64,000 bases of DNA from Planctomycetales bacterium 10988 (GTDB taxonomy: Bacteria; Planctomycetota; Planctomycetia; Pirellulales; Pb10988). Both the position numbers and the translations under genes were made by a program. Below the pieces are notes generated by a model that saw nothing but the letters and a program-made list of their open reading frames with translations, made no database searches and was not told where the DNA came from. Positions 24,614 to 62,590 of this stretch are shown here, one piece after another (positions within the stretch are counted from its first letter, which is position 1; every line of letters starts with the position of its first letter). Location of the stretch: assembly GCA_009664345.1 (NCBI GenBank), contig CP043547.1, positions 558,001 to 622,000 of the forward strand, given 5' to 3'.

Positions 24614-24883
24614 ATGCAGTTTGGCGAGCGAGTTCGTGAGCTTCGAGAAGCCCGGAAGCTGACTCAAAAGGCGTTCGCTGACCGGCTCGGTGTGAGCGTC
24701 TCGTACATCAGCAAGGTCGAGAACGAGAAGCTGCACTTCGGCGACTACCCGTCCGAGAAGTTCATCCACAAGCTGGCCTCAGAGCTTGAGGCGGACGAGG
24801 ACGAGTTGCTGCTGATTGCCGACATAGTGCCTCCTCAATCCGGCAGCGAATCAGAGAGAACCCCGAAGCTTTTCGCTTACTAG
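24614..24883 (+). CDS. XRE-family HTH regulator, probably frameshifted at its C-terminus
   Basis: A helix-turn-helix regulator. MQFGERVRELREARKLTQKA and FADRLGVSVSYISKVENEKL form the HTH, followed by the FGDYPSEKFIHKLASELEAD and EDELLLIADIVP region typical of regulators beside restriction and toxin-like loci. After about residue 73 the annotated frame gives SGSESERTPKLFAY and stops. The neighbouring frame instead continues as IRQRIRENPEAFRLLATLSD, the expected ending of this protein type. One base therefore seems to be missing near 24832. It is divergent from the SNF2 helicase and likely autoregulates both arms of the island. The HTH domain is intact. Confidence 0.85.
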   Translation: MQFGERVRELREARKLTQKAFADRLGVSVSYISKVENEKLHFGDYPSEKFIHKLASELEADEDELLLIADIVPPQSGSESERTPKLFAY

Positions 24884-24906
24884 CAACGCTGAGCGACGAT
24901 GCACTC

Positions 24907-27930: not shown

Positions 27931-28341
27931 TGACTATACCACAGGCTGGACTCGATTCAGGAGGCCGGGTCAATCCAAGTCGGGGCGTTACTAAGAGGCA
28001 CGGACAATACCTCCCGATTCAGAGTGAAAACACTGCGTTTGATTGTTTTAGACACCTACAAATCAGTTTAGTGGAAACTTTTAAACTAACCGATTAAGAA
28101 GATAGAGTTAACCTGAGGGAGAAATGAAATAAATTGTCTCACTAATTATTAGCATTGTCACTTGATAAGCTAGTCAAGCTGCTGTATTATCCACTTGATT
28201 AATTCGCTTATATTATTAAGAAATAAAACTACCAACTTATTGCCGCTCAAACTGTCGGCTCATAGATCATGGGAAGTGATAAGAAAGTAGTGAGAATGAT
28301 CGTTTAAAAAGTCGTTTCGTCAGAATAATTTGGAAAATCAC
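27931..28341. other. AT-rich intergenic region upstream of the giant genes
   Basis: No gene is visible. The base composition changes from the G-C-rich neighbourhood to markedly A-T-rich sequence by about 28.05 kb. The promoter of the giant genes must be here, but I could not single out one clear -35/-10 pair among many A-T-rich candidates. Confidence 0.5.
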
Positions 28342-37300: not shown

Positions 37301-37395
37301 CACTTAGCACAGACACGCTAAAGATTCTCGCCAGCCGTGATGGATATTACCTGGGGCCGTACGATGTATCTTATCATCCGAACACAGGTTCCTAA
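28342..37395 (+). CDS. Giant protein of unknown function (about 3017 aa)
   Basis: A single uninterrupted frame of over 9 kb. I do not recognise it. There is no signal peptide and no clear transmembrane segment; the start MNIYWLSLTGIDSQKPIENN looks cytoplasmic. The first 830 residues read as alternating beta strands and polar loops. A region at about residues 830-1240 (ITGAGVSLNVPGLFNFDG, ASLGAGYNSKL, SSLGFTGEYAFEANHSIS) vaguely recalls DUF6603 proteins, which are large beta-rich bacterial proteins of unknown role. Charged, helical stretches follow (about 1400-1620), then more beta-like segments. The upstream TTG at 28330 is a weaker start. The next giant gene begins 53 bases after its stop. 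Codon use and composition differ from the flanks, suggesting transfer. Confidence 0.7.
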   Translation: MNIYWLSLTGIDSQKPIENNFYMMLVHHEQKYRLAFLVCREQDDQEYNREYHDFFMECKLQEYSLSDGSRDELRVFLENELCRQNPDSESWVMYQFGDDSYLIPFDSDEIKIGSAGKYLGIDPNISGSWIQRPSSFALGEDASNLSSKVNSNFTSITSRFEFTNNTYDFSFAISNDGTGDQLLTNLPFTIRLADFISRKKSTSHQFGFIAVGPMFEIDWIENNINFYLEQDIISLDFILESSVTFEYPLNISRTTLVRFTGDNLAIRIPLVKPELLPQLIALNSDAFSLEVETGLITSLIQTTDKFRSQAADTLQDDLVYPIRPEAETLGDQIRQANPFCLRGDAAVVEGSGGGILQFEDGGIPTWHESIQANPSLFIYTQVESQISNGILSTFEIDLEGLGINKQGTLALQKAGTWVDSSSITEIYFPVVFQLTPGVGNPVFLEILITYNLLEMRMTSTRFIYRFIQSQDFIGQGSLWYSSKIDSSNRQIDFSLFALEGPFSTGADRLSDQNQTGEIDFQLGELTLAPGNLSNKEDFRLLVPGGEYASANSNKRFRLKLQQIESGTPLIKQNTKFQAEYFRISRQGVSVFAELLEGSEIELISDSNTMNPLHAKALALSKEGEKSLIKLNDNSVEVAQLYARMQVPGTKNLQSEIFARFVQEKVHDRHTASFQAYLGLAGNSSEPKVGLSNEIFNATISNPRFWLQWNNENWDVGTLVDATLEVHPSISMSDGMTELKGSNSIIVKDLDLVKLHGKTTNNRTIELELKTRKFAFSLFDAIGIELDKVVLKLKSDKINFFSEKATLDFNLGGGIRGGVRVGSLDLECSKKHIEVSRITGAGVSLNVPGLFNFDGDISWGSKEQSDSHYIALNGILETTGLRLEGLLIYESNFKRNGRRADSIVAVGGKGNLNYMLLQSLWWQTASLGAGYNSKLGNLSQTPTNNEILRKIDNLEPIDPENWDFVSDEGTYATVVGKAIFTSQPAGPRTICGFVIWSVLSLDSQSRFIAAGKLWLFSSQRFAEQNAESPSLIAAMHFDPRSPSLSLVAKTNRAGKIESMPHLQQILNQVDAQLTIRLDRNLLDIYLERLKYRQEFIRNQFEFEATWRFVIYDTTILQYARAKVSGSFGDSLKEANAGISFKVDLYSGLDYGGLYGRNGLLTWGRLDAQLTASIEAFCMFEIRTPHVKWRGWKSTVEWRTHTKKFPFRGKSSLGFTGEYAFEANHSISVGGRIYVHFHRHICGNEVNISPELKFQPSVLKKARDQTRAFETRIDSVGRPDSLQVSNAKLNKLLLRLDRLNQTESRQTEEWILVPAAHEEDNSRWVILPTFNTEWFVSTFLPPEQGQEEQIHVDFLSCVEAINLYHDQDLIETIRPAWDQRNWRETPIGNDANDEAIELYRLNAMLAETVPEQNSLYHQKMEEIERGKGLNEYEKIIDERPYKRLRDALSDEDRLTLPAEVYPFTYRPLSNPYFEKKRRMMIKRRQGVQGVHDGLTSWHQARGALLSFILAGLESGRGILTKSYISSESSYYTAYVRSSPLPDSANHKFKVVRDGEESDVDIISAHDPLLLSELRNKITVFRDCQEFHEFNPETSADPGSGEVVIKLPVDIRALFEPIKVRRGHIEKSYATNWFELVQFVRIIRGDSEIIADQVPLPANISRVTGSDEFVLLEPFVCSDQVKVDASQRQKVASTLSRKSYRLQIVPLGMESLPINHPQLKNLEINFPDVYPYLPGRRIFPNDLALEFDPFCDSSSSTLDIRLVHMTSEVQSLRLETATLTLGDFELFYLEDEISNNGFYSQTIEEDGSLLTNNQKKYQGKGRESRVAGEASDSELRSTHGLTPITVIYHDADNLGVSQYGLESNLIESTLNNSESPSVKLTLIQTNRVGFYRLGSIDPNKVYNFYIRAAGSSDLVPVRHLPVFVSRGTIDRDGENLPLAVPGLEMVKPVGPELIDFNLRTLSKKEATENFPYHQLIVSWTHLATQNQSNWLGGADLEVYLKPTGQTLLTQRIEVLEPRHFRISQKDFREPRQWQAILPERLLRSKSNARIFSNSSRKLFWDSRRWFYDETFEPNPNSFPRFENSPQSAPLKDLLNRIKNYKDAEIQGNYIELRLLVTSFWERITDFLADPQNINSKNHLSTIEEVRSSLLCLMAGLTPTVQDNTNSAYPFSKLLEEFYNRRDNFFPGDLSEQDTFEKQTDLIWARRLNDIVYQRLEFIVPFLDFEFPENDDFTVEESILLANEDKKNTYSQALGLPNSKPSLPYVNRIIDVLRNWIGLESPNLNRLPPEVRETYPKSFWFLERMLSRENSRLDWEDWLQGQDVAKRMHDPDLGDSDTNIVLKSLYDVVKSEPRSDEPIPIVYAEALQRILGLSTGTLAVSYDDKLRRQDNGYFQIRPHHSLTLEIGTEQDPYIKTVVSTHLSSDSPFIEQLNVNLENPTLQSCVSSFPAFLNLMERFGLAVDIALEDEKLGTQKQSLLVSKLKTQLEDYINDPNNLRARFVICRGKAPGRTFTNSSNFSSTNRQSSEGEFPFVKLIMLPEGFIADESFLITRGLKQGGVALDEVTIKTLRVVTDLCDALYQAAEEPLEIWLEQSGGEVISIPYETYGNEKKCTVGLTLPDTIGQNIGVNVRLLSRYQILAEWLRSDIKPQSVDVTQDKGIYFRPFRGGDEIGGIDLDSDISNLKSTEIPRKPILHPNRFEPVFTTALPPDAIDSRDNLLTSIETGFRDIGLRFYERAVNEHHIKSVLTNLLRSNIQKTSVTHFELLNPNDASTIIFPNELGLLPKHRPYFLEDSLESESHYQQTEPAKSSNFRSNKSSWASRKPRKIAHRPAFWLGSSPTEGELTIHFSRHLDLLTPAEIERLSLPIYFDVAGFASSKIELRQCPDLRYSYLVLYKIEATQSKQRKQYLPRRNLYAPLFEILLPLHPSHGGEDQTTAMIKKFSSEIESVGEEKPRIEFNNYPEEIEEGNIIHWEFGLSVPLKLSDDSNLTLSTDTLKILASRDGYYLGPYDVSYHPNTGS

Positions 37396-37448
37396 TCAAA
37401 GTACTCAATACCAATAGATTACACCATTACAATCCATGAGATCTTTCC

Positions 37449-40400
37449 ATGACTACACAACCTGATCCGTCCATCGTTGATTCTGACTCTATCGTAATTC
37501 GCTTTGTAAGTTCGAACTTGGAGGATTATCCGGCAGAAGAATTTTTTTTACAGTTGCGTGTTTTACAGGGAGCAATCGACAAACTTAATGAGGAAGGCAT
37601 CTTCCCACTAACTCTGACGCAGAACGACATAAAAGTAGCCTCTGATGAAAACTGTTTTAATATATTCTGTCTGAAAGAGTTACTTGATATCACAACCGTC
37701 GACAAAGTCGATGTTAGGGCTTTTGTTCAAAAGTTGGACGTGCCTTGTAAGGAGTCTGAAAGTTTTCAAGCACTACAGATTGTTGCAGGAAGTGTAAGAA
37801 TTGAAACCGAATCAGAAACAGGATTCTATGACAACAATGCTAAAATTTGGGGAAATGTCATCGATACGATTTCCCAGATTGGACTTACCAGCAACTATTT
37901 AGAATTCTCCATTCGAAGGAACCAAGAAAAACATCAAATTCGCCATATTGCCAAATCTGATAAGCATAAAAATGGAATTCAGTATCGCTTTTGGGAGCTT
38001 ACTTCATGTGGAAACTTGTTACCGTTGGAGATGATTGAAATACAGTTAAAACGAATTGGTCTTGGGATTAAACAGGACCAAGCTCAAACAAGTGGAAATC
38101 AGACTATTATTAAATCGATTCCAGTATCAGAGAGCAGACCAAGGTATATTTTTCGGAGTCAGTATCAAGAGCAAACCGAAAGCCAGGCCAATGTTTATGA
38201 ATTAATGCAACCTGGAATTTCACTAGAGTACAGCGAATTTGAAAACAGACCCCGATGGACTCCAAAAAGACTAGAGATAGAACGGTTAGTGTTAGAGAGT
38301 AGCTTACCCTCGGAAAGAACTAACTTTATCTTTACCGATTTTGAACTCTTTGAACTTTCAACTATCAGTTTTGATCCTACTTCACCACAAGATCTTGCGC
38401 CTGGAGTCGAAGTAACATGGAAGAAATCCGAAGATGGGTACTCATTGTCAATTGATACTAACGATATGGAGCTTACTTTATCCTCAGCCAATACCAATGG
38501 GAATTTGTCTGAACTTCTATGGCAACATTGCGTTGTTTCTACGGATCCCGACGTCCTCGGATGGGTAGGGATTCCGCTTCCTTTAGTTGAACCTCCACTG
38601 GTCCATACTGATCCAAGAAGTGTTAACTTAACGAGTGGTGTTAGGACAAACTTTAGCGTTGATGATCATCAAGACTGGCATTTTGCTGCCATTCCTCTTG
38701 CAACCCCTCAATCTTCGGGGAATGTCGCCACAATCTTTAGCTTGGAAGATCAGCAGGTGAAAGAAATCACCTACTTTGCAAATGCGTTGTCCACTAAGTT
38801 GACAGTTACCACACCAAGTATATTTATATATGATAAGCCACTTTCAGATCCCAAATCTGTTCCAGCTGTTCCGCATCCCACAAGATACCTAACAGAAGCC
38901 CAACTTGTATTTACCAATATTAATTCTACAGGTAGAAATACCGAACCCTTAAGTTTGCAACTTAGTTTAGGTAATGATAATAGGACCTCTGCAACTTTTA
39001 CTTCTGAGAGAGCATTTAAGTATTTTGAGCCTGCTGGAAGAGGTCTGATGCATCCACTCTCTCCTGCAGGTCGAAATGTTTTTATTGAGTCTCGCGAAAG
39101 CGGGCAACCACCCTCTACCTTGCCAGACGCAAGCCGAGGACTAGTAGCGGTTGAAGTTCCAAAATCAACGAGTTTTAACTGGACTTTTCCCAATTCTTTG
39201 ACATCTTCGCGCAGCTCATTTACTTTGCTTCAAGTGTTTGGAAATTTTATTGCGACCGAACCGAAGCGATTGGCAAGTACTGCTATACACCCTTTGCATC
39301 CCTGGACTTTGTTTTCATGGGAGGAAGGAAGCGTATCGCTTTATGATTTATCGTCGCTTAGTAATCTAAAAGTATATCACCGGAATCTAATCCTCGAACT
39401 CACTGAATATCTTCGAACAGGTGATGTAAAGTTAGTGGAGACAGATCTTGAGGTTTTAGTAGCACTTGTTCGTGATCGATATGCAGAAGCTATTTCCTTC
39501 AATCCATCAGACCCAGTTGATGCTCACATTCAAAATTTTCTTCAAGGTGCTGATTTCGATGAAAGCCCAACAGCAAATTTTATCGCTATCCCGGGCGGCT
39601 GGCCCGCTGTTGTGATTGAACCAAATTCTCATCGATTAGAGGCTTTTAGAGAGGATGTAGCCCCGTCGAAATGGTTGGCTTACGATGTGAGCACATCTTG
39701 GCCAGAAGGGGCGACTTATCCTCACATTGATCCTCTCAGTAGTCGTAATTCTCAGCATCAGTTTCAACCCTTTATCGAATCTGACTCTGGGACAACTCCC
39801 AGGATTTACGATAATGCAGGAACAATTTTAAGTTATGGCCACGCCATTCATTCTGGAGGGCGTTGGCCTACTCTACAGATTCGACGTATTGAGGTGCCTA
39901 CTCACGTTGGAGAGGGCCCATATTTTGTGCTCGAGTTGGATGAGGATTTGGTCCAAAACGAGAGCGATGAAATTTATCTTTTTTGCAAGACACTGATCTT
40001 GGAAAAGTATGCAGATCGTCAGTTTAAACCTGTAAGTAAAGATATCGCGAACCTTCTTGGTAGCTATTCGAGTTGGCGATTTGGACGGAATAATAATAGG
40101 GAGTCTAGTTTTCTCGATAATGGATGGGTCCGAGTTGGAAAAATACCGCTCAGTGTGGGTAAGATTGAACGGCTTGATTTTACTGCCGATCTGACAGAAC
40201 CTGTAAACGAAGTCGAACTAGAAAAGATTATTTTCAAAGCGGTCCTACCTTCCCCTAGAGAGTTAGCATTCCAACAGGAAATCGAATGCCCTCTCTTTGT
40301 TCAAGAAGCTATACAACACCAAAAAATCATCAATGTTACTGTCGTACCTGGTGCAAGTGTGGAAGAGGCAGATGTCGCCGCAGAAGGTACGTTTCTTTGG

Positions 40401-43400
40401 AAACTCTCACAGGAATCTCCCGATAAGTATCAAGAAGGCTCCATCGCTACAGGAGATGGAATTAGTCAATTGAAAGGGGAAGCAGTCTATGGCCCAAGTA
40501 ATAAGATAGAGAAGAAAAGCAGTTATTCTACAAATGTATGGAGCCTAAATTTACCTGAAGAAAATTCAATCATAGCTCGTGTTTTGGGATCAGAACGCAA
40601 AGTTGATGCTCCGAACCTAAGAACTTTAACATACTATAAACAAAATGATATTTACTTTGCTGAAACAGAAGATTTTTCTGATCCTTCCAACTTTGGTTTC
40701 CGATTCACGTCAAACCCGCTACAAATTCCGGAATATTCTTTAGTGCTGTCGCTATCCGATCAAGAAGAGATAGACATTTTAGCAACCATTCTTGGTCGTT
40801 ACCTTTCGTCTGGCGACGAAAGTGAATATCAGCAAAGTGTTTCGATTACCAAGTCTCAAGAAGAATTACAGCTGCAAGGAATAGATGGATTTTTATCGGC
40901 TTTTGTTGCAGCAAGTGGCCAAAGTATAATGCTCACTTGGTCTGAGACAGACAGCTTTAAATTTCGATACTGGAGAGAAATTCCTTTAGAAAGTACCCTT
41001 GCCGAACTTCATATCCCAGGAAGCTCTCACACATTAGAGTTAGAGGGATACACGCAACGCTTTAACTTAGAGTCTGAAACAGGAGTGATTGAATCATATA
41101 TCAGCGGGTATTTTGAAACGCCAAATGAAGATTCCACTCAGCTTTCAACACCTGATTCGGTTCGAATCGTATTTCTCTCACAAGAGATGAAAAGGATCGA
41201 TTCTTCCGTTCCACCTCAAGAAGAGCAGCTAGAAGAGTTTTCCGTCTCTGCGCTTCTCACGGTTGAGATTGAAAAAAATAGTCAACACGATTTAGAGAGT
41301 CATCAACCTCATATTTTGACAGGAACAGTTCGCCTCCAAGTGGACCCAAGCGATCGAGATAAACTTAGCTTAATGCTTGAAGACACCGTTTATGATCTTA
41401 CTCCTACTCAAGCATCCAGAAGGTTGGCGGAGACCCAAAGGACTCGTTCAGGAAGTGAAATAGAAGATCGATCAAGCAAAGACATCTCCTTCTGGGATGA
41501 TACTGGGACGTATCGTTCGATCGATTTATACGAACTTTCGACCAACACTGCTTCCTTAATTTCACCCAGATTTGCAGCTTGGAATTTTGGCACAGATTGT
41601 TCGCCACAACCGATACCTGTCTTAATTGATGTCGATCCTGCATCGCACACCGAGGATACAATTATTGTAGAAGGGGAATATTCCAACCAGTCAAAGCAAC
41701 TCGAAGAGACAACAATTACCGAGTTGGAAGTTGAAACAGAAGATATCCTTGATGAGGAGATTCCTGAATCCCTGGAGAAGATCAATACGAAAGAAAATTC
41801 TGACAGTACCGAATTAAGTGAATCAACATCTCGCACCTTTGTATTGGCCTTCTCTAGTCAAGGGACTTTATTTGTTGCTCGACACGGCATGGACACGGGT
41901 TATCTCTATTTCAAAAAAGAAAACCAGAATTATTTAGATCCAACTGAGGTACTCTTCCCAGAGGAGAAGATCGTCTCAGCTGATTTCGCAGGTGAAGAGT
42001 TGATCGTCCTTACCGAAAAAAAGATTTGGGGATTGAAAGCTGGAGTTCTCAAACTATATCATCATGATCAAGTTGATGGACACGACAATATCAATATTTG
42101 TATTGATCCATTAAAACGTAGCGATAGTACAGACCGAGATTTAGTCATTGGAAGAAAGGAGCATTCAACATATATAGTTCGAAAATATAAATTATCGGAG
42201 GATAGGAGGTTAACTCAAGATGCTTCCGCATATTATCCCTTCAGAGCGATTGGTTGGGGATACTACCAAGTTAAATCCTCAGGCGGACCCTTTTTTATCT
42301 ACCATCACACTAATTCTTTGTATCATTTTATTTATGGAACAGATAATTCCCCTCGTTCCCTCCGACTTAAAATTATTGATGAGTTATTTGACTCTTGCTC
42401 CTCTCTAATTTTCGAGAGTCAGTCAGTTGAGACAGGCTTTGTTCTCTACCACCTAGATAGTCGGAGAGTAGAGCACCTACACATCTACAAGACAATTGGA
42501 AGCTGTAACCATAGACACATAGGCAGGATAGATTTAGAAGACGACGAGAGTCCCACTAGTCTATCCATCGTGAAGTATAATACTGGTTGGATTGTTGCGG
42601 TAACTTTAGAAATTGAAGGTTCCTCAGACCCAGAACCAACTCGTCTATATCAGTTCACACCTATCACACCTAACGGTGACGAATTTGAACAACGTAAATT
42701 GCCAATTACTTTACGACATGCCCAAAAGGTAGATTTACAGGCGACAGAATCAGGGGAGATCCTAGCAGCTACTTTAGTAGAAAACGGGGACTCGTTAGAT
42801 GTTCGTGTAGATCGGATTGCTGCACATCGGTTATATTTTGATGCTGTCAATGAGCAGGTAATTCCTTACGATCGTTGCGCCGATGGCAATAGTGCTTCAT
42901 CGCCCCAAGATGGATTTCTTAAATTACCACAAATGTGGCATCTTCAAGCGGCTGGGTCGCAGCTATTAAGCGTCTTGCCTGATACTTGGCAAGCAGTAGT
43001 ACCAGAAAGGATTCAGGCACCAGCACTGAGCTGGGAAGAAAAACAGGGAGCTGAAGCTTGGTTAATTGGCCCACTTCTTGAAATCAACTCACAAAGATTA
43101 TCTATCGTTCGTAGTAATTTAATCTTAGGTTCCCTGCTAGAGGGGACTCCCGATTCACTTCGCACCGACACACTTTTCGCCTTGAGCAGAAATGCGGACA
43201 TTGGCGTTCTTCTCAATCAGACCTCTCCTTCGGACATTGAGGAAGATCTAGATGAGAAACTTCTCAAGAATTGGCTTCGGCTTTTGGATCAGAGAGCCTG
43301 GAAAGGATTAACTCTTCATCGTCATTACAATGAAGAAGGAGATAGCATCCTCAAAATTTTGCCAAGAAAGAGAATGTCGATACGCCTATCAACTTCAGGT

Positions 43401-44969
43401 CAATTGTTAGAGACAGCCGCAGACCGCTCAAGTCTCTCGGATGAAATTTGGCCAGCTCCATACCATCTTCCCTATGATGAGTGGCAACTAATCGATACCT
43501 TCCAAGCGGAAACAACTACACCAGACGAACCTTCGAGTGATGGTTTTGAGTACAAGCCTGGAAACACCGAAGTCTCCGCTCTGGGGAGAGGACAGGATCT
43601 TCGGAGGTTTTCTTTAGATCGTCGATCCTCCTCAACGAATCAATATAGTACTATCCCAGCGGATGCGAGGAGAGCGGAACTTCTCATCGGAGAAATTGCT
43701 GCCTTCCATCAATTACCTAGAAGGCGAACAGGATACGCCTTGACAGAAAGTTCAGATGGCGGACGACCATATCTTCCTGCCACGCTTGAGATCGCACATG
43801 GTTCAGGGAAACCGGGAGCAATGATTTCTACGGGAATAACCGCAGTTATCGATAAGAAATATGGTTCCACAACCACTTTCGAACTACGTGACCCTCTTGT
43901 CTTGGCAGGCCCCACTTCACCAATGCTTGCTGATCTACAAGCTATCTCACAACCCGTCTATTTCAAGGACAATGAACTTCAAGGACTCAAACAAATCGAA
44001 GCTAGCTGGTATTTAAACTATCATCCATTACTGATTGACCATGAAACCAAGCTTCCACTTACTCGTCCTAATAGCGATAACCTATTTTTAACATACGACG
44101 AGGAGACCGAAGAGTATGGTTTTATAAACCTCAATCGCCGTATCTTTTCCCTGGTGAGTGTAGTATCAAGCGCTTTAACGGAACGACCTATTTTTACAGA
44201 TACAATTGCCGAAAACGCCTGGCGCGCAGACCCCTCCACTCGGTCTCTCCCTATTCAATCGCGAGAAATTAATGCGGGAGAGTATGCAACAGACTTGTAT
44301 TTAATTACACGGATAGAAAATATTGACGGAGAGAAAAGAGCTATCGGGGGCACTCGATCATTCAAGCCATGGATTTATCTGGTAAAAGAAATCGAAGAGG
44401 AAGATGGGTCAAAAGTCGAAGTAGGTGAAGTTAAGGAATTCATCGAAGTATTTACTGAACTTCAACCTTCAGGTGAATACTATCTTTGGAAGGCAAATAG
44501 TCAAATGGAATGGGCAGAGGTCATTAAAATGGAAATTATCTGGAGAAGTACAGAGGAAACAACCCTTTATGTATATCCTTGGAGCCCTGATGAGAACCCT
44601 GTTAAGACCTCTGAGGAAAAGGAGACCGATATAACTTCGGTCTTAGCTTTTCCTATTTCAATCCGCTCTATCCAAGGAAATACCGATCCTTTCAACAGCC
44701 TTGTAGTGAACGAGCAGGATTACGAACATCTAGGATTAACATTCAACAATATAGATGGAAAAATTGCACAGCGTGAGAGTTCCACGAGTATCGTTCGAGA
44801 ACCTAGTGGTGAAACACTACTTCAACTGTCTGTAAAATATAATGCCTCTTTTCAAATTCAGACTTTTAGTTCTTCTGATCAGTCACTTAAAGTTTGTACA
44901 ACGCTTCCACAAGGCGAAGTGTTAGGAATTGAATCAGAAATAGTAACAGAACTTCTTCAGAAAAAGTGA
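37449..44969 (+). CDS. Giant protein of unknown function (2506 aa)
   Basis: A second uninterrupted giant frame with the same A-T-rich composition as its neighbour, so they were probably acquired and act together. It has no signal peptide or transmembrane segment. The first about 1400 residues are beta-strand-like with polar loops. An acidic Glu/Ser/Thr linker spans about 1400-1462 (ELEVETEDILDEEIPESLEK and surroundings). Residues about 1462-1830 (TFVLAFSSQGTLFVARHGMD, EELIVLTEKKIWGL) have a repeating strand pattern like a beta-propeller. Further beta-rich sequence ends in LPQGEVLGIESEIVTEL. No catalytic motif is clear. It could be a surface, scaffold or toxin-delivery component, but nothing in the sequence proves this. 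Confidence 0.7.
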   Translation: MTTQPDPSIVDSDSIVIRFVSSNLEDYPAEEFFLQLRVLQGAIDKLNEEGIFPLTLTQNDIKVASDENCFNIFCLKELLDITTVDKVDVRAFVQKLDVPCKESESFQALQIVAGSVRIETESETGFYDNNAKIWGNVIDTISQIGLTSNYLEFSIRRNQEKHQIRHIAKSDKHKNGIQYRFWELTSCGNLLPLEMIEIQLKRIGLGIKQDQAQTSGNQTIIKSIPVSESRPRYIFRSQYQEQTESQANVYELMQPGISLEYSEFENRPRWTPKRLEIERLVLESSLPSERTNFIFTDFELFELSTISFDPTSPQDLAPGVEVTWKKSEDGYSLSIDTNDMELTLSSANTNGNLSELLWQHCVVSTDPDVLGWVGIPLPLVEPPLVHTDPRSVNLTSGVRTNFSVDDHQDWHFAAIPLATPQSSGNVATIFSLEDQQVKEITYFANALSTKLTVTTPSIFIYDKPLSDPKSVPAVPHPTRYLTEAQLVFTNINSTGRNTEPLSLQLSLGNDNRTSATFTSERAFKYFEPAGRGLMHPLSPAGRNVFIESRESGQPPSTLPDASRGLVAVEVPKSTSFNWTFPNSLTSSRSSFTLLQVFGNFIATEPKRLASTAIHPLHPWTLFSWEEGSVSLYDLSSLSNLKVYHRNLILELTEYLRTGDVKLVETDLEVLVALVRDRYAEAISFNPSDPVDAHIQNFLQGADFDESPTANFIAIPGGWPAVVIEPNSHRLEAFREDVAPSKWLAYDVSTSWPEGATYPHIDPLSSRNSQHQFQPFIESDSGTTPRIYDNAGTILSYGHAIHSGGRWPTLQIRRIEVPTHVGEGPYFVLELDEDLVQNESDEIYLFCKTLILEKYADRQFKPVSKDIANLLGSYSSWRFGRNNNRESSFLDNGWVRVGKIPLSVGKIERLDFTADLTEPVNEVELEKIIFKAVLPSPRELAFQQEIECPLFVQEAIQHQKIINVTVVPGASVEEADVAAEGTFLWKLSQESPDKYQEGSIATGDGISQLKGEAVYGPSNKIEKKSSYSTNVWSLNLPEENSIIARVLGSERKVDAPNLRTLTYYKQNDIYFAETEDFSDPSNFGFRFTSNPLQIPEYSLVLSLSDQEEIDILATILGRYLSSGDESEYQQSVSITKSQEELQLQGIDGFLSAFVAASGQSIMLTWSETDSFKFRYWREIPLESTLAELHIPGSSHTLELEGYTQRFNLESETGVIESYISGYFETPNEDSTQLSTPDSVRIVFLSQEMKRIDSSVPPQEEQLEEFSVSALLTVEIEKNSQHDLESHQPHILTGTVRLQVDPSDRDKLSLMLEDTVYDLTPTQASRRLAETQRTRSGSEIEDRSSKDISFWDDTGTYRSIDLYELSTNTASLISPRFAAWNFGTDCSPQPIPVLIDVDPASHTEDTIIVEGEYSNQSKQLEETTITELEVETEDILDEEIPESLEKINTKENSDSTELSESTSRTFVLAFSSQGTLFVARHGMDTGYLYFKKENQNYLDPTEVLFPEEKIVSADFAGEELIVLTEKKIWGLKAGVLKLYHHDQVDGHDNINICIDPLKRSDSTDRDLVIGRKEHSTYIVRKYKLSEDRRLTQDASAYYPFRAIGWGYYQVKSSGGPFFIYHHTNSLYHFIYGTDNSPRSLRLKIIDELFDSCSSLIFESQSVETGFVLYHLDSRRVEHLHIYKTIGSCNHRHIGRIDLEDDESPTSLSIVKYNTGWIVAVTLEIEGSSDPEPTRLYQFTPITPNGDEFEQRKLPITLRHAQKVDLQATESGEILAATLVENGDSLDVRVDRIAAHRLYFDAVNEQVIPYDRCADGNSASSPQDGFLKLPQMWHLQAAGSQLLSVLPDTWQAVVPERIQAPALSWEEKQGAEAWLIGPLLEINSQRLSIVRSNLILGSLLEGTPDSLRTDTLFALSRNADIGVLLNQTSPSDIEEDLDEKLLKNWLRLLDQRAWKGLTLHRHYNEEGDSILKILPRKRMSIRLSTSGQLLETAADRSSLSDEIWPAPYHLPYDEWQLIDTFQAETTTPDEPSSDGFEYKPGNTEVSALGRGQDLRRFSLDRRSSSTNQYSTIPADARRAELLIGEIAAFHQLPRRRTGYALTESSDGGRPYLPATLEIAHGSGKPGAMISTGITAVIDKKYGSTTTFELRDPLVLAGPTSPMLADLQAISQPVYFKDNELQGLKQIEASWYLNYHPLLIDHETKLPLTRPNSDNLFLTYDEETEEYGFINLNRRIFSLVSVVSSALTERPIFTDTIAENAWRADPSTRSLPIQSREINAGEYATDLYLITRIENIDGEKRAIGGTRSFKPWIYLVKEIEEEDGSKVEVGEVKEFIEVFTELQPSGEYYLWKANSQMEWAEVIKMEIIWRSTEETTLYVYPWSPDENPVKTSEEKETDITSVLAFPISIRSIQGNTDPFNSLVVNEQDYEHLGLTFNNIDGKIAQRESSTSIVREPSGETLLQLSVKYNASFQIQTFSSSDQSLKVCTTLPQGEVLGIESEIVTELLQKK

Positions 44970-47998: not shown

Positions 47999-48285
47999 TT
48001 GTTTAATTAGTCATAACCCTAAAGATAGAGTCAGATGAGACGCTTCGTAAGACCTTAGAGCCTGTTATGTACTCTCGGCATCCTAAAAATCCATTTTCAA
48101 GGGGGTTATTGTGGATCCAACTTTACCAGGAGCGCTTGAGAGTCTTGTGAAGCCAAGGTCTTCAACTCAAAATTCGTCTAAAACCAGTGAAAAATGGCCA
48201 ATTGACCGATTTATAAGTCGATCACAGGCTTTAGACAGAGCAAGATTATTACGATTCCCTATTTCTAAATTTTATGGAGGATCAA

Positions 48286-49218
48286 ATGGAACGCATTCAA
48301 CAAAGCGCTTTCAACGATTTCAGTCCCGAAGCTGGCAACTGCGTTACTTTTGGCAATCTACCAAATGGTCAAATTCCTCAAGACGGCTACAAAATAGGAT
48401 GGTTTGACATTCGGCCACTTATTGGATCTGCATTTATTGTTGGCCCTGTAACAAGGGTAGTTAGTCATGGAAAGGTGTTGAGGTTTGGAGGACATGACGG
48501 CACAATTCAAATTTCCATTGACCTGCCAGTAGACTCGGTCATTGTGTCCGGTAGAACTGGGGTTCCTGACCCTCATCCTTTAGAGCTAAGAGCATTTACA
48601 GCCAGCGAAATCGGACTTGTCGACGAGCAGCTAATTCACCAGCGAAATCCAAATATATTCCAAGAAGTAACGTTAAGAGGTGAGTTATCGATTTTGCATG
48701 TACGAGCCATAAATCCCGAAGGTGAAATCGACTATATCTGCGCTGGTCCATCTAGCTCTGAATATGGATCTGAGATTCGCAGACGTGTGGAGGATGAGCG
48801 ACGTAGTAACCCTGAAATCGAGGAGCAATTTCTGAATGACCCCACACTCTTTGAGGAATTGCTATCTCGTTCAATTGCCGAGGCAAGTCAGCTTTATGGT
48901 GGAGGAGATAATGCTCGCGAAATTGTTATCGGATGGGAAAGCTCAATAGGCGCGATTATCCCTATACCTCCATTGGTGATAAAATGGCCACCACCATGGG
49001 GGTGTGTTGCGAAAAACATTGCTGCAATGGTTGCATTAACTATCGCGCTTACGACTCTTGCATCTGCCTTAAGTGTTCCCACAATAGGAGAGCTTACCGT
49101 ATCTCAAGCACTTCCTATAGTGGCTAGGTTCGGCATTTCTGCGGAAAGGGCTTATGCTGTTTTGACAGTGCTCGGAGCAAGTCAAATTGTTATGCTGGCA
49201 ATAGACAACTGCAGTTGA
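48286..49218 (+). CDS. Hypothetical protein with C-terminal membrane segments (310 aa)
   Basis: I do not recognise this protein. It has a polar N-terminal domain of about 200 residues (NCVTFGNLPNGQIPQDGYKI, FVVGPVTR-like beta strands), an acidic middle (RRRVEDERRSNPEIEEQFLN) and, near the C-terminus, two hydrophobic segments at about residues 241-260 and 281-305 (AAMVALTIALTTLASALSV). It ends with IDNCS. A clean GGAGGATCAA ribosome binding site precedes the ATG. It stands alone between two dead insertion sequences, so its original context is lost. Membrane-tethered or pore-like roles are only possibilities. Confidence 0.6.
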   Translation: MERIQQSAFNDFSPEAGNCVTFGNLPNGQIPQDGYKIGWFDIRPLIGSAFIVGPVTRVVSHGKVLRFGGHDGTIQISIDLPVDSVIVSGRTGVPDPHPLELRAFTASEIGLVDEQLIHQRNPNIFQEVTLRGELSILHVRAINPEGEIDYICAGPSSSEYGSEIRRRVEDERRSNPEIEEQFLNDPTLFEELLSRSIAEASQLYGGGDNAREIVIGWESSIGAIIPIPPLVIKWPPPWGCVAKNIAAMVALTIALTTLASALSVPTIGELTVSQALPIVARFGISAERAYAVLTVLGASQIVMLAIDNCS

Positions 49219-49805
49219 TCGTTCGACGGAGAATATTTTAAATTTCCTCCACCTAACATCATCAAAAATTTGAGGTCCCTTGAGCTTGGTTCTATATCTG
49301 ACTTCGCTCTAATTGGTACTACCCAACTCACCACTTAAGGCGTCACTCAAAGTGTAACCTGCCAGTAAAGGTAAGTTACACTTTCTCAAATAATTTAGTA
49401 GACCGTATCTGCAGCGATCATACATCCAAAAAGTGCTTTTGCTTGCCTCTAAAAAACACTTCTGATTCAGAAGCCGCTAACGCCATCGAGATGATCCAGT
49501 CCTCTGGTGACTCACTTTCTTCGATCCTCGCATCCGCCCAGGCACGCCAAACCGTCGGGGATACAAATCCTGTAAACACGATCGCGGCCCAAGCATGGCC
49601 GGTTGGCTCCATCTGCTATCTCTACTGCTTTTGAAGGGTGTAGACCGGTCTTCTTTGCCCGAAAACTTGGGGACGAACCAAATGTTTAGTTTAGAAACTG
49701 AAGAGATAGTAAGTCCAAACTTCTTTAGAGCCTGTGGTCAGAACTGATCTTTGCGAGTTTCTCTGAATGTGGAGAATGACCCTTTTTTGCACGGAGGGGA
49801 CTCGC
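49219..49805. other. Intergenic region with a possible gene remnant
   Basis: Mostly noncoding. On the minus strand around 49420-49610 a frame reads PTVWRAWADARIEESESPED and looks protein-like, perhaps a leftover of a displaced gene, but I found no start signal or family. The last part before the IS5 element contains no visible feature. Confidence 0.3.
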
Positions 49806-50575
49806 ATGACTGGCAGACTTTTGACAGACGAACTTTGGACGCAGATCGAACCCCTCTTTCCGACCTATCGACGCTCTTACAAGGGAGGGCGGCCGCCGGT
49901 GGACAACCGCACGGTCTTCGCCTGTGTTCTCTTTCTGTGCAAGACCGGCATTGGCTGGCGGGAGTTCCCCACCGAGCTGGGAGTCAGCGAGAAGTCGATC
50001 CGCCGACGGCTGAACGCCTGGAAAGACCTGGGATTATTCGAGGCGATCGCGGCTCATCTGCTCACCCGACTCCGAGCCGCCAGAGGCCTGGACCTGGCCG
50101 AAGTGCTGATCGGCGGCGGACTCGTCAAAGCCCCCTGCGGAGGCGAAAATGCGGCCCCAACCCCACCGACCGAGGCCGAAGCGGCAGCAAATGAATGTCA
50201 TGACCGACTCCCAAGGCGTCCCGCTGGCAGTCCAAGTTTCGGTGGCGAACGAACACGACGTCGGCTTTTTGCTGCCGCTTTCGCTTGCGCATTTTCCTCG
50301 CCTCGGCGGCGTGGCAGGTCGACTACCCACCAAGCCCAAGCGGTGGCGAGCGGATGTCGGTTACACCTCCGGGCCGTTGTTGAATTTGCTGGAAGGCTGC
50401 GGCATCGAGGCGGAAATCCCGCAACGCGGCCAAGACTCCGAGACCAGCCTGGAGCAACGACGCTGGCCGGTCGAACAGACAATTTCGTGGCTGAAACAGT
50501 ATCGCCGCGTTGGTATCCACCGGGAACGCCGAGCCTCTAAGAAAATTGCTGAAAGGTTTTGGGAGCTCTGAGAAA
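49806..50575 (+). mobile_element. Inactivated IS5-family transposase
   Basis: The transposase begins MTGRLLTDELWTQIEPLFPT, followed by PVDNRTVFACVLFLCKTGIG and WREFPTELGVSEKSIRRRLN. The reading frame then shifts twice, once before CGPNPTDRGRSGSK and again before VPLAVQVSVANEHDVGFLLP, and ends with RRWPVEQTISWLKQYRRVGI. At the first catalytic position the expected Asp in 'VLIDGG' is Gly (GGC for GAC). The 3' end beyond about 50535 diverges, so the element is also truncated. It cannot be active. Confidence 0.8.
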
Positions 50576-51239: not shown

Positions 51240-52598
51240 ATGTACCGAGCATTTTTGATTTTGAGTTCCTTGGTGGCAGTGTTGGTTCTGGGTGTGGCTC
51301 AGGACAGAAGCGATTCGGCAGAGAGCCCGGAGCGAGTAGACGGGCGGTACGAGTTGGAAGTACAGCGACGCTCTGTGCAGGCGAGTATTTCGCAGCTGAC
51401 AGAGGGACAGTCGGTGCTTAAGGCGAAACTCCGCGAGGTGGAAGAAGGCTTGGCTGCGCTTGAAGCGGCTGACAAACAGATCGCTTCACGTCGGCAGCTG
51501 ATTGCCGACGGGCATGCAACACTGGACGCCAAATGGGATGAAGTCCATGTGGCCCGAAAGCAGCTTGCCGCCTGGCCAAGCGTGTATCACGCGAAGTGGG
51601 GGGAGATCACCTCTGCTCAAGCAGGGATTCGAACATGGCGGGAACAGTATCGTCAATCCTGGGAAGGGATCGAAGAGAAGCGATCGGAGATCCAGGCTGG
51701 CCATCAGCAAATCGACAGCGGATGGAAAGTGATTGAAGAACGCCGTGACCAGATTCGTCGATCGGGCCATAAGCAGCTCGACGCTGCGTGGGAGGAAATT
51801 GAAAGCCGGCGTTCGCAAATCCGGGCGGCTCACAAAAAAATCGATGATGGCTGGGCGCAGATCGAACGAGGGCGAGCTCAAGTGAAGGAGGGCTGGAAAG
51901 AATGCGACCGCGTGTGGAGTGAAATCCAACGAAAAAAGGACCGTGACCCGTTGGGGCGATCGGGAATACGCAGTGGCCAATACAGCCGCGCGTTCGACAA
52001 GGTTAATGAGGCGATCGGGAAGTTGAACACCATCTGGAAGACGCTGGGCGAGAAGGGTGGCGAACTCAACGAGAAGCGGCGAAAGCTGAATGCCGTTACA
52101 GATGGACTCAATGCACAGGGTGCGAAACTCAATAAATCCAGGGACAAACTCAACGTGGCATGGGAAGCACTGGACTCGCAGGGAGGTCAATTGAATGAGA
52201 GTCGTGGCAGATTGAACTCGGCCACAGCCAAGCTGAACGCCTTCGGCAAAGCTCTCAACGATAAGAATTCCGAACTCAACTCCACCTGGAAGAAGTTGGG
52301 CGAATTCGGCGGTGAGCTGAATGAGCAGAATCGACAAGTGCCGACGAAACGACGTGCTCTCAATGAGCTGGCTAAGCAGCTCAATCGGCAGCGAGCCGAA
52401 TTGAATCAGGCCCACCGAAACTTGTCAGAGAAGTCTGATGCCTTGGACGCCAACAAGAGCGAGTTGCTGGCGTTTCAAGTCGCGGCACAAGCACGGCTCA
52501 AAGAGATGAATGACGCGTTGACGAAGCTACGTGACGTCGAAAGGAACTTGTCTGCGGAGGCCATCGTGACCCGTGGCGACGGCAAAAACACACGATGA
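51240..52598 (+). CDS. Exported coiled-coil protein with Leu-Asn heptads (452 aa)
   Basis: The protein begins with a signal peptide (YRAFLILSSLVAVLVLGVAQ) and is otherwise a continuous helix-forming repeat. Residues 140-220 hold Trp-containing repeats of 21-22 residues (for example WEEIESRRSQIRAAHKKIDD). From residue 262 to about 409 a Leu recurs exactly every seven residues (262, 269, 276, 283 and so on), and most of these Leu are followed by Asn (KLNKSRDKLN, QLNESRGRLN). Asn at this heptad position is typical of coiled coils tuned for register or oligomer state. It lies in series with an exported proline-pentad protein. Function is unknown; a periplasmic or extracellular filament or spacer fits. 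The AGGAGGGCGAG site supports the start. Confidence 0.7.
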   Translation: MYRAFLILSSLVAVLVLGVAQDRSDSAESPERVDGRYELEVQRRSVQASISQLTEGQSVLKAKLREVEEGLAALEAADKQIASRRQLIADGHATLDAKWDEVHVARKQLAAWPSVYHAKWGEITSAQAGIRTWREQYRQSWEGIEEKRSEIQAGHQQIDSGWKVIEERRDQIRRSGHKQLDAAWEEIESRRSQIRAAHKKIDDGWAQIERGRAQVKEGWKECDRVWSEIQRKKDRDPLGRSGIRSGQYSRAFDKVNEAIGKLNTIWKTLGEKGGELNEKRRKLNAVTDGLNAQGAKLNKSRDKLNVAWEALDSQGGQLNESRGRLNSATAKLNAFGKALNDKNSELNSTWKKLGEFGGELNEQNRQVPTKRRALNELAKQLNRQRAELNQAHRNLSEKSDALDANKSELLAFQVAAQARLKEMNDALTKLRDVERNLSAEAIVTRGDGKNTR

Positions 52599-52683
52599 GC
52601 CGTCCTGCGCGATCGCAGGAGTCGGGAGACATGGTCAAGGTAAACTGCCGCCTTCGGCGACAATTTCACAAAGGAGAATCGAA

Positions 52684-53775
52684 ATGCGTTTTCACAAGAC
52701 CCTGACGATGGCCGTCCTGGTGGCGGCAATCACCGCCAGTTCCGCCAACGCACAGTTTAAGATCAAACCGCCGCGGGTTCCTCGTATCCCGACGCCTCCT
52801 CCAATCCCGGGCTTGCCGGGCGGTGGCGGTGGTGGCAACCCTGGCCCGGTTGACCTGCCCTCGGTCAACGTTCCTTCGGTTAAGGTACCGAACATTGACG
52901 TGCCGACCATCAAGGTCCCGTCGTTCAAGCTGCCAAGCGTCGACGTCCCCTCGATTAAGGTGCCGACACTGGATCTGTCGGCAGTCGACGTTCCGAGCGT
53001 TGACGTCGACTTGCCCAAGGGCCTGGACGTCGACTTGCCTGAAGGGATCGACATCGAGCTGCCGGATGTCAATGTCCCAGACTTCAAGATCGAACTGCCC
53101 AAGCTGGACGACATCAAGGTGGAGTTGCCGAACATTGACATTAGCCACCTCAAGATCGATCTGCCGGACACTAAGCTAGACCCGGTCAAGATCGACTGGT
53201 CGAAAGTGGAGAAGCTGGACCCGCTGGCGGTTGATTGGGCGAAGGTCGATCCAGGCAAACTTCTCACTCAGATCGACGTCAGCAAGATCGACTGGGAGAA
53301 GCTCGACCCCAGCCGGTTCGACTGGAAGAAGCTGGACCCGAACATCGACATCTCCAAACTCGACCCCGCCATCGTGGCACTCGCTGTCGATCCAACCGGA
53401 AAACTCGCGGACTTGCTTCGTCACGCCGAGCAGCAAATGCTTGCCAATAGCCCCGGGTGGGATATCGAAGACTTCCTTCCTTCGGACCTGAAAGAAAAAT
53501 GGGATCGGCTGGTAAAGGAATTCACTGTTGAGTTTTGGGCGTACAAACCATTTCCCAACGCGACTACGGGCGTCAAGAGCGACTTCTTTGGCCACGGTAG
53601 CTATGAAATTGGCATGCGCAACACCACGACGTTAGACGTGGCCGTCTTCGTTATTTCATTGGCGGCTGGCCCGGCCGGTCCGACTGCTTACCTGTATGGT
53701 GGTTCCGTAGACTGGGTGGCTTACGGCATTTGGAAGGCAGGAGAACGTATCGTGAAGGAAGTTGTGCAGCCCTAG
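52684..53775 (+). CDS. Exported proline-pentad repeat protein (363 aa)
   Basis: A signal peptide (MRFHKTLTMAVLVAAITASS, cut near ANA) leads a low-complexity Pro/Gly stretch (PRIPTPPPIPG and a Gly run). Ten pentads then have Pro at residues 59, 64, 69, 74, 79, 84, 89, 94 and 104 with a Ser at 99 (units such as VNVPS, IKVPS, VDVPS). Alternating hydrophobic and Pro spacing continues more loosely to about residue 150 (DVDLPEGIDIELP), changing into KIDW / KLDP repeats around 165-230. This recalls AHNAK-like or beta-solenoid pentads and could form a thin rod. The C-terminus has a globular-looking domain (SPGWDIEDFLPSDL, TTTLDVAVFVISLAAGPAG). It starts about 85 bases after the coiled-coil gene, with AAAGGAGAATCGAA upstream. 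Confidence 0.65.
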   Translation: MRFHKTLTMAVLVAAITASSANAQFKIKPPRVPRIPTPPPIPGLPGGGGGGNPGPVDLPSVNVPSVKVPNIDVPTIKVPSFKLPSVDVPSIKVPTLDLSAVDVPSVDVDLPKGLDVDLPEGIDIELPDVNVPDFKIELPKLDDIKVELPNIDISHLKIDLPDTKLDPVKIDWSKVEKLDPLAVDWAKVDPGKLLTQIDVSKIDWEKLDPSRFDWKKLDPNIDISKLDPAIVALAVDPTGKLADLLRHAEQQMLANSPGWDIEDFLPSDLKEKWDRLVKEFTVEFWAYKPFPNATTGVKSDFFGHGSYEIGMRNTTTLDVAVFVISLAAGPAGPTAYLYGGSVDWVAYGIWKAGERIVKEVVQP

Positions 53776-54407
53776 ATGTCTTAGGGATGGCACTCCCCGC
53801 GACGACGTCTTATTAGGACGGGGAGAAAAGAAAGCATGCCGGTTTATTGTGGGGAGAAACCGATCCCGTCGCAGTGGGATTCGGTTCCGAAATTGCAGAG
53901 TTCCGGTTTCTCCGTGCTGTGCACCCTACAATCTGGAGTTCCTAATTGATGCTCTCAATGGCTACGCTCGTTATCCCGAGCCTGTGACATGTGACCATAT
54001 TAGCTTGTAAACGCCGGAGGAGGGGCGGGTCGCAACTATATTTGCCAATCGCGATAACTCGCGCCCGGCAAGGTCACAACACACGTTGAACTGGCAAGGT
54101 TTTTGGGGTGTGAGTGGTGCAAGGGTGACACAAGTCCTGAAGAGACTTGAGTCTCACGCAAAAAGCGCTTAGCGGAGTTCGTCCTGTTGCAACGATGGTG
54201 CAATCCGGCATATCAACCGGGCAGGACATCATTCTTTGGCGTGATTGTAAGCGTGTCGCTCCTCTCAAGTACTGAACGGAATTCGTCAAAAGTAATCCTC
54301 AGTTCTCCATCGGCGCACTCCGCTTGAAGAACAGTTTCGACACCATCCTCCAAAACAAATACGAAGCGTTCCAGAGTCTGATCGGGGAGCAATCCCCCAT
54401 GAACTAA
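53776..54407. other. Intergenic region between the repeat proteins and the IS701-type element
   Basis: No gene is visible apart from the part into which the transposase frame runs beyond the left end of the insertion sequence. Sequence near 54.0-54.3 kb contains no terminator or RNA that I can support. Confidence 0.4.
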
Positions 54408-55728
54408 TACTCCAGTTGTAGATCGTTAGCCCGGGGGTGGTTTTGGTTGTCTGGAGCGGTGGTGGGACTGACGGGCATAGTGCTGATGGCTGCAGCGCCA
54501 AAGGCTCCAATGCAACACCGAGGCGAGCAGCTCGCCGTGGTTCAAATAGCTCAGAAGCAAGCGTTTCAACTCGGGAGTACTCAGGCGAATCAATCCGCCG
54601 TTTTTTTCGCGGCCTCGTGCGGCTCGCGGGGCGAGTCGGCAGCACGATCAGCATTGCATGGGCCAACAGGCTCAGGGTGACGTGACGCTGCCACCCCTCG
54701 AAACTTCGCACCTCGTATTCATCCAAGCCGACTTCCCCTTTCGCCTCCTCGAAGGCTTGCTCGACTCGCCAGCGGCTCCTGGCGAGTTCGGCGAGTTTCC
54801 GCAGTCTCGTGCGGCTCGGAGCCCCGGCCACGTAGTAAGAGCGGGCTCGGTCTTCCTCCAAACTTTCCCGCACGAGGAGCCAGCGATTTCGCTTCGGTTG
54901 CAGGTCGTGATTGATCTCCAAGCGGGCAAAGCGGGATCGCCGGTCGCCTTTGCTCCCGGGGCCGAGGTCGATCGTTCGCCAACGCGAGGCAGGGATTTCG
55001 TGGGCCAATCGCTCCGCCGTCCGCTGCGAAAAGCCTTGGCTCAGCTTGAGCGTTCGGCTCACCGCCAGGACGTAGTTCTTGCCGTGCTCCTCCAAAAAAC
55101 GACGAAGCGTCGAGGCCCCGTAAACCTCATCGCCGGTGACCCACGCGAAGGGAACGCGGGCTTGGATCGCTCGGGCCAGCATCGCCTGAGCCCGTTCGAG
55201 CTTGGTGGAAAAGCCGCGATTCTCGGGGATTCCCGCTTCCCGACACCGCGGGCGGTCCTCGATCCACGCCTTCGGCAGATAGAGTTCGCGGTCGATCAAG
55301 GCACAGCCTTGCGAACTTGCATACGCCAAGAAAACGCCGATCTGGCAGGTCTCGAGGCGTCCGGCGGTGCCCGAGTACCTCCGAGCGACCCCGGCACTTT
55401 TGGTCCCCTTCTTGAGAAACCCGGTCTCGTCCAAGATCAAAACCGCCTGCGAATCGGCAAGGGCTTCGCAAGCGTAGCTCCGCAAACTGTCCGGCAAGGC
55501 ATCGGCCGACCACGAGGCTCGACCCAGCAAATTTTGAATCCCATACGGCGTGGCATCGTCGAGCTGTTCGGCCAGTTGCCAGGAGTTCTTCCGCCGGACT
55601 TCCGAGGTCAGCCCCCGCAGATACCGCCGAGCACGCTGCCAGGCTTCGCCCCTGGCAAACAGCGGCCGCAGCAAGCTCCCGACCCGCTCCAGCTCCGCCG
55701 CGGACACTTCAATCCCTTCACGATTCAT
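54286..55728 (-). CDS. IS701-family transposase
   Basis: A 480-residue DDE transposase. The first acidic motif AVLILDETGFLKKGTKSAGV places Asp100 in the conserved 'DETG' context of the IS701/IS4 group; later SRWRVEQAFEEAKGEVGLDE supplies the Glu-containing Y-REK-like region. The N-terminus has a helical SLLRPLFARGEAWQRARRYL. The frame does not stop at the left end of the element but runs about 120 bases past the inverted repeat into flanking DNA, so the last 40 residues (TIYNWSISSWGI and on) are not typical of the family. The catalytic part looks intact, so the copy may still be active. Confidence 0.85.
   Translation of the reverse strand: MNREGIEVSAAELERVGSLLRPLFARGEAWQRARRYLRGLTSEVRRKNSWQLAEQLDDATPYGIQNLLGRASWSADALPDSLRSYACEALADSQAVLILDETGFLKKGTKSAGVARRYSGTAGRLETCQIGVFLAYASSQGCALIDRELYLPKAWIEDRPRCREAGIPENRGFSTKLERAQAMLARAIQARVPFAWVTGDEVYGASTLRRFLEEHGKNYVLAVSRTLKLSQGFSQRTAERLAHEIPASRWRTIDLGPGSKGDRRSRFARLEINHDLQPKRNRWLLVRESLEEDRARSYYVAGAPSRTRLRKLAELARSRWRVEQAFEEAKGEVGLDEYEVRSFEGWQRHVTLSLLAHAMLIVLPTRPASRTRPRKKRRIDSPEYSRVETLASELFEPRRAARLGVALEPLALQPSALCPSVPPPLQTTKTTPGLTIYNWSISSWGIAPRSDSGTLRICFGGWCRNCSSSGVRRWRTEDYF

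Positions 55729-60579: not shown

Positions 60580-60605
<26 letters not shown>
60087..60605 (+). CDS. Hypothetical protein coupled to a serine recombinase (172 aa)
   Basis: An unknown protein, mostly helical, with a beta-strand opening (MFVIETDEKTYLVPEPLVSA) and an acidic C-terminus (DDEDAFVELLAEFFWSHRKE, EVNEENEDT). Its end overlaps the start of the downstream recombinase by about 26 bases, so it is translationally coupled. It may be a directionality or regulatory partner of that recombinase, which is only suggested by the overlap. It has no signal peptide and no enzyme motif. Confidence 0.55.

Positions 60606-62590
<1,985 letters not shown>

What the first reader, a model, noticed from the sequence alone, without database searches (positions are those of the whole stretch)
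52684..53775. Exported proline-pentad protein with an AHNAK-like periodicity
Pro falls at every fifth residue for ten units, then the pattern changes to DW/LDP repeats before a globular end. The two-stage repeat after a signal peptide, next to the Leu-Asn protein, suggests a pair building an extracellular or periplasmic structure.
Basis: partly seen in the sequence, partly recalled or inferred. Interest (0 to 1): 0.52.

Follow-up and report, generated by a model that had tools for sequence, protein, structure and literature searches.

The report
Exported orphan protein with proline pentads
A bacterium makes an exported-looking protein whose front half repeats a five-residue proline pattern; the pattern is real and seems kept by selection on the protein, but the gene is almost unique to this genome and its job is unproven.

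Summary
Window 52684-53775 (+) encodes 363 aa: a signal-peptide-like start, a Pro/Gly linker, ten units [VL]P[STN][VIFL][KDN] (nine with Pro, Ser at residue 99), a DLP[KE]G-type stretch, DW/LDP repeats and a 123-residue end. Eight consecutive prolines sit at exact five-residue spacing (at most 7 in 50,000 shuffles). Synonymous codon positions in the pentads are saturated, so this is not a fresh DNA array.

The protein and the upstream Leu-Asn protein both look exported and operonic, but the pair is not conserved. The Leu-Asn protein was found in none of 191 other genomes of its order. This protein has one real relative (30/78 identity over the LDP module), fused there to a helical tail. The C-terminal 126 residues have no clear relative in 385 other order genomes. 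'AHNAK-like' is an analogy; periaxin's pentapeptide region is closer. Similar tracts follow signal-peptide-like starts in a BBP7 barrel, a PEP-CTERM protein and an S41 peptidase of the same order.

Best reading: a lineage-restricted envelope spacer protein paired with a helical rod, lying between insertion sequences. Structure models were too weak to decide between disorder and a solenoid.

The parts
51240..52598 (+). Neighbouring Leu-Asn protein (452 aa): signal-peptide-like start, Trp-bearing helical repeats of period 21, then L-N heptads; predicted helical rod
   Evidence: lag 21 z 8.2 in residues 91-240; lags 7/14/21 z 7.6/8.0/10.9 in 241-410. Family hits are coiled-coil in kind, nearly all below curated cut-offs.
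52670..52676 (+). Ribosome-binding-like AAAGGAG, 7 bases before ATG
   Evidence: Sequence
52684..53775 (+). Pentad protein, 363 aa and stop
52684..52752 (+). Signal-peptide-like N terminus (residues 1-23, cleavage SANA-Q, by eye)
   Evidence: Sequence; hydropathy
52753..52854 (+). Pro/Gly linker (residues 24-57)
52855..53004 (+). Ten pentads [VL]P[STN][VIFL][KDN] (residues 58-107)
53005..53169 (+). Acidic DVDLPKG / DVDLPEG / IDIELP stretch (residues 108-162)
   Evidence: 24-bp DNA repeat at 53002-53057
53170..53403 (+). DW/LDP repeats, units of 9-10 (residues 163-240)
   Evidence: 30-bp DNA repeat at 53273-53339
53209..53436 (+). Module shared with G092 protein P0003 (residues 176-251)
   Evidence: BLASTP 30/78 identical, E 3e-13; profile search
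53404..53772 (+). C-terminal part (residues 241-363) with a hydrophobic stretch 314-337 and a predicted terminal helix; no known relative
49767..50540 (+). IS4/5-type transposase frame upstream (context)
   Evidence: DUF4096 E 3.9e-20
54286..55728 (-). DDE transposase downstream (context)
   Evidence: DDE_5 E 2.4e-42

Best explanation
The gene encodes a Sec-exported envelope or surface protein built as a spacer. After signal cleavage, about 140 residues of proline-punctuated hydrophobic/charged repeats hold an extended, non-helical chain. The DW/LDP module that follows forms short repeated turns and is the conserved contact unit. The C-terminal part, with a hydrophobic stretch and an amphipathic end, anchors or docks the chain at a membrane. 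The neighbouring Leu-Asn protein is exported from the same operon as a helical rod and probably works in the same layer. Shown: the sequence anatomy, signs of selection on the pentads at protein level, the single relative, and similar tracts in other exported-type proteins of the order. Inferred: export, the spacer role, the anchor, and the partnership.
For: Signal-peptide-like starts on both proteins, same strand, 85-base gap, ribosome-binding-like sites. Pentad regularity beyond chance. Within the pentads, third-position identity at same-residue codons is 0.39 over 105 non-independent pairs, against 0.31-0.37 expected for saturation, while second positions are 0.90 identical. No DNA tandem array over the pentads. 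Of 40 inspected loci, 22 hold a tract of 4 or more [VILFYM]P.[VILFYM]. units. Three of the coding ones were scanned, and all three are of exported kinds with the tract soon after a signal-peptide-like start: BBP7 barrel (L011), PEP-CTERM protein (L014), PDZ-S41 peptidase (L016). The one relative, P0003, has the same order of parts (signal-like start, LDP-rich repeats, shared module) and then a helical tail.
Against: No function, localisation or expression data. The pair is not conserved. Both AlphaFold models are poor (mean pLDDT 36 and 45). Several of the 22 tracts lie in frames that look non-coding (for example L004-L007, L012), and others are not near a signal peptide (L010 family, L047, L060), so recurrence is partly a low-complexity effect. 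The hydrophobic C-terminal stretch peaks at only 1.56 Kyte-Doolittle over 19 residues, borderline for a membrane helix.
Confidence: 0.45

Rival explanations
1. The pentads fold as a solenoid: each unit is read as phi-[D/K/N]-phi-P-S, the two hydrophobic residues point inward as in pentapeptide-repeat proteins, and Pro sits at each corner. The protein is then a rigid beta rod displayed outside the cell.
For: Hydrophobic spacing of 2 and 3 inside each five (period 2.5, 0 of 4,000 shuffles reach it) is the inward i-2/i pattern described for pentapeptide-repeat proteins (PMC2964730, passages read). D or N is at the i-1 place in 6 of 10 units. Hydropathy is on the folded side. The DW/LDP part models as regular three-residue turns with bridges at block-mean pLDDT 50-74.
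Against: No Pfam pentapeptide model matches even at E 10. i-2 residues are bulky and Lys fills i-1 in 4 of 10. Only ten clean pentads, 2.5 coils. No structural match.
Confidence: 0.15
2. A recently arisen or decaying lineage-specific orphan in a mobile region, with low-complexity tracts of no particular function.
For: No relative in genome contigs by pattern scan, plasmids or phages. Transposases on both sides and recombinases, an integrase-like gene and restriction-type genes in the window.
Against: Intact frame, coding-type GC3 0.717, good ribosome-binding-like site, saturated synonymous divergence with conserved residues in the pentads.
Confidence: 0.25
3. Remnant of a phage tail: tape-measure-like protein with a coiled-coil neighbour.
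For: Residues 49-112 match phrog_33360, tail length tape measure, E 4.1e-9; the neighbour matches tape-measure families at 2.7e-5 and weaker.
Against: Both matches lie in repeat or coiled-coil sequence. Both proteins have signal-peptide-like starts, which tape-measure proteins lack (general knowledge). No tail gene was recognised among the neighbours scanned. No phage match by tblastn.
Confidence: 0.04
4. A lipid-handling pair: pentads lie on a lipid surface like the ApoB-100 beta region, and the Leu-Asn helices resemble the tunnel-forming helices of MCE proteins (both structural roles recalled).
For: Only PDB sequence match is ApoB-100, several stretches of the same pentad kind. MCE family model matches the Leu-Asn protein at 6.2e-12.
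Against: ApoB E is 0.64, not significant. The MCE match is 45 bits against a cut-off of 140.5 and its best stretch covers the Leu-Asn helices only.
Confidence: 0.05

Closest known systems
   Same: Signal-like start, proline/LDP-rich repeat, shared module (30/78 identical) ending in ...DPxIxALAxDP(S/T)G
   Different: Repeat is KPNLKLDP, not phi-P-x-phi; the C-terminal part is a long helical tail unrelated to this one; no Leu-Asn gene beside it
L-periaxin PEVK-rich region (vertebrate myelin; PMC7072810, passages read)
   Same: Consecutive pentapeptides [AGLMV]-[CEPQRS]-[DEKL]-[AILMPV]-[AEHKPQR]; mixed charge; evenly spaced Pro; described there as probably extended or disordered
   Different: Eukaryotic scaffold with a PDZ domain; no sequence homology shown; the pentads here look more hydrophobic
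AHNAK repeats
   Same: Recalled: DVDLP-like acidic/hydrophobic/Pro periodicity, most like residues 104-166 here
   Different: Recalled: repeats of about 128 residues in a giant intracellular protein; not compared by any search
N-terminal pentad tracts of order-mates: BBP7 barrel (L011), PEP-CTERM protein (L014), PDZ-S41 peptidase (L016)
   Same: phi-P-x-phi-x units after a signal-peptide-like start
   Different: Attached to unrelated domains; the tract lacks the alternating K/D
Pentapeptide-repeat proteins (quadrilateral beta-helix)
   Same: Hydrophobic spacing 2+3 per five; D/N before the central residue in 6 of 10
   Different: No profile match; Pro at i+1, bulky i-2

Membership tests
Pentapeptide-repeat family | Sequence match to the family's curated profile | tested here: not met
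   No such family for whole protein at E 1 or for fragments at E 10
Pentapeptide-repeat family | Quadrilateral beta-helix fold | tested here: inconclusive
   Models of mean pLDDT 36 and 45; no Foldseek match at E 0.001; second look inconclusive by its own rule
AHNAK/periaxin family | N-terminal PDZ-like domain | tested here: not met
   No Pfam family in P0001
AHNAK/periaxin family | Homologous repeat sequence | not tested
   No AHNAK or periaxin sequence was aligned; likeness rests on the motif given in PMC7072810 and on recall
Phage tape-measure (phrog_33360) | Match across the long protein and neighbouring tail genes | tested here: not met
   Best stretch is 64 positions of a 1,239-position profile; no tail genes recognised among neighbours scanned
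Exported proteins | Cleavable Sec signal peptide | tested here: inconclusive
   Judged by eye and hydropathy; no predictor or experiment
Conserved two-gene system | Both genes together in other genomes | tested here: not met
   Leu-Asn protein in 1 of 192 order genomes, its own; the one relative of the pentad protein lacks it beside it

The most novel reading that the evidence does not exclude
Proline-cornered pentads [VIF][DKN][VL]P[ST] form an exported beta-solenoid rod, a variant of the pentapeptide-repeat fold with Pro at each corner, continuing into a DW/LDP solenoid. The same tract was invented repeatedly as a stalk in exported proteins of this bacterial order.
Probability: 0.12. Interest if true: 0.6.

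Novelty: new variant of a known kind. Interest (0 to 1): 0.3.

Why it matters
If the tract is a stiff stalk, it would be a simple sequence code for an extracellular spacer that recurs on unrelated exported proteins of this order, testable with short recombinant pieces. If it is disordered, it is an ordinary lineage-specific spacer. Either way the shared LDP module, seen in two families of one order in different contexts, is a small unclassified module worth a name once more members are found.

Tried and rejected
Full-length P0001 hits in 37 of 196 order genomes. I read the frames of 40 fetched loci. Only G092 shares more than low-complexity sequence; the remaining rows without a fetched locus were not read. 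Phylum search with the module gave 5 of 392 genomes including its own; three of the four others were read and are chance frames, the fourth (L040) was not read. C-terminal part: 14 of 386 at E 0.1 including its own; the other 13 have E 0.0127 or worse and were not read one by one. Class search with residues 159-363: 3 of 397 (own, G092, and G112, a simple IDPGK array at a contig end). Profile A1: 3 of 396 (own, G092, and a weak G005 match whose surroundings show no such protein). These genome samples overlap one another, so the counts must not be added.

Viral-contig hit L046 is a 40-residue match inside a 1,963-aa phage-like protein: chance. P0002 and P0003 gave nothing in viral contigs. Idea that P0001's C terminus equals the gene next to P0003: no similarity. 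P0002 against the P0003 tail: only a 37-residue match, E 0.004, of helical kind. P0003 is not kept in its genus: 2 of 4 genomes match, one being itself and the other over the repeat only. Idea that the organism is Kolteria: rejected, genome 7,613,473 bp (PMC12288469, passages) against 6,649,480. Structure libraries gave nothing usable: Foldseek PDB and viral, no match at E 0.001; pentapeptide-repeat structures are absent from the eight weak rows. The 'knotted solenoid' paper (PMC13123833; abstract and passages read) concerns mainly Caulobacteraceae/Brevundimonas and is not a match. Paper searches for planctomycete proline pentads (listings only) showed none; that is no proof that none is in print. 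The apoB paper search (listing only) was not used. The planctomycete label itself is my inference from order-mates (BBP7, PEP-CTERM); no tool named the genome. The promoter/terminator scan found no more sites than shuffles.

Full report
WHAT IS THERE. The ORF at 52684-53775 (+) is intact and is preceded by AAAGGAG seven bases before its ATG. It reads as a signal-peptide-like start (1-23), a Pro/Gly linker (24-57), ten pentads (58-107), an acidic DLPxG-type stretch (to about 162), DW/LDP repeats (163-240) and a last part of 123 residues. The ten pentads are LPSVN VPSVK VPNID VPTIK VPSFK LPSVD VPSIK VPTLD LSAVD VPSVD. Nine have Pro. Eight in a row are at exact spacing 5, and no shuffle in 50,000 reached 8.

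IS IT KEPT BY SELECTION? Codons for the same residue differ freely between units. Third positions agree in 39% of 105 same-residue pairs, against 31% expected from codon use of six window genes and 37% from the two genes of the pair themselves, while second positions agree in 90%. Tandem Repeats Finder sees no array over the pentads, only short ones at 53002-53057 and 53273-53339 in this protein. The pairs are not independent, so this is an indication, not a test with a p-value. It argues that the pentad pattern is old and held at protein level, while the DW/LDP part grew more recently.

CONSERVATION. The genome is the only one held for its family. Full-length search of 196 order genomes gave 37 with some match at E 0.01, nearly all low-complexity as far as read. 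One is real: G092 encodes P0003 (602 aa), with 30 of 78 identical over residues 176-251 of the window protein. A two-row profile found the module in G092 and the own genome only, plus one weak chance match, among 396 order genomes. A search with residues 159-363 in 397 class genomes gave the same picture. The C-terminal 126 residues gave no match better than E 0.0127 outside the own genome, in 386 order genomes. Pattern scans of genome contigs found no relative of either protein. Nothing was found for the pentad protein in plasmids or phages. The Leu-Asn protein matched 1 of 192 order genomes, its own.

THE PAIR. The Leu-Asn protein (51240-52598) lies 85 bases upstream on the same strand and begins with a stronger signal-like segment. 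Its repeats are helical: period 21 with Trp in the first half, then L-N heptads. Its many family hits are of coiled-coil kind, and nearly all fall below curated cut-offs; DUF4200 alone passes, at 31.3 against 29.7 bits. In G092 the LDP module is fused to a helical tail in one chain. That arrangement suggests module and helical rod working together, but direct similarity between that tail and the Leu-Asn protein is only E 0.004 over 37 residues.

RECURRENCE. Among 40 loci inspected, 22 contain four or more phi-P-x-phi-x units. Several are in frames that look non-coding. Of the credible genes, three were scanned against Pfam: a BBP7 putative porin (L011), a PEP-CTERM protein (L014) and a PDZ-S41 peptidase (L016), all with the tract soon after a signal-peptide-like start. 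L008 looks closely similar to L011 by eye; its own scan failed. Other credible genes have the tract far from the start (L010, L013, L017, L020, L056, L057) or no obvious signal (L047, L060). The loci were drawn by similarity to this protein, so the set is biased and gives no rate. The own genome has no second tract of this quality.

STRUCTURE. AlphaFold without an alignment gave mean pLDDT 36 for the whole and 45 for residues 159-363. The DW/LDP part of the second model reaches block means of 50-74, with regular short turns. No structural neighbour was found at a useful level. Hydrophobic residues in the pentads have period 2.5, as expected from the inward positions of pentapeptide-repeat proteins (PMC2964730, passages), and hydropathy is on the folded side. 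Sequence profiles of that family do not match. The question of solenoid versus extended chain is open.

SETTING. An IS4/5-type transposase lies upstream and a DDE transposase downstream. The window also holds recombinases, an integrase-like gene and restriction-type genes. The pair is GC-richer (0.556, 0.573) than the window (0.491) and than five sampled stretches of the genome (0.456-0.555).

VERDICT. A real, regular, lineage-restricted exported-type repeat protein, most likely an envelope spacer with a helical partner. AHNAK is an analogy; periaxin's PEVK-rich pentapeptides (PMC7072810, passages) are the closer one. Moderate to low interest, raised somewhat by the recurrence of such tracts on unrelated exported proteins.

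Noticed in passing
28330-44969: Two adjacent giant frames (3,021 and 2,506 aa) of low GC (0.40-0.42) on the same strand, with no annotation made here.
   Followed up: no
13711-25770: Block of restriction/defence-type genes: GmrSD N-terminal domain, type III restriction-like helicase, methyltransferase-like frame (by eye), SNF2-like helicase (by eye), weak Mrr-like nuclease.
   Followed up: partly
596-2566 and 60580-62567: Serine recombinase near each end of the window; the second one is split between two overlapping frames, which suggests a frameshift.
   Followed up: partly
48274-49218: 314-aa orphan with a hydrophobic C-terminal part; no Pfam or PHROG family.
   Followed up: partly
L036:6777-7628 (-): Gene after P0003 in G092: 283 aa, with a DEVYQRHDEGYG stretch that recalls phospholipase A2-like motifs (recalled); no Pfam match.
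   Followed up: partly
L010, L013, L017, L020, L056, L057: A family of about 1,400-aa frames in one family of the order carries M/L-P-x pentad tracts near residue 400.
   Followed up: no
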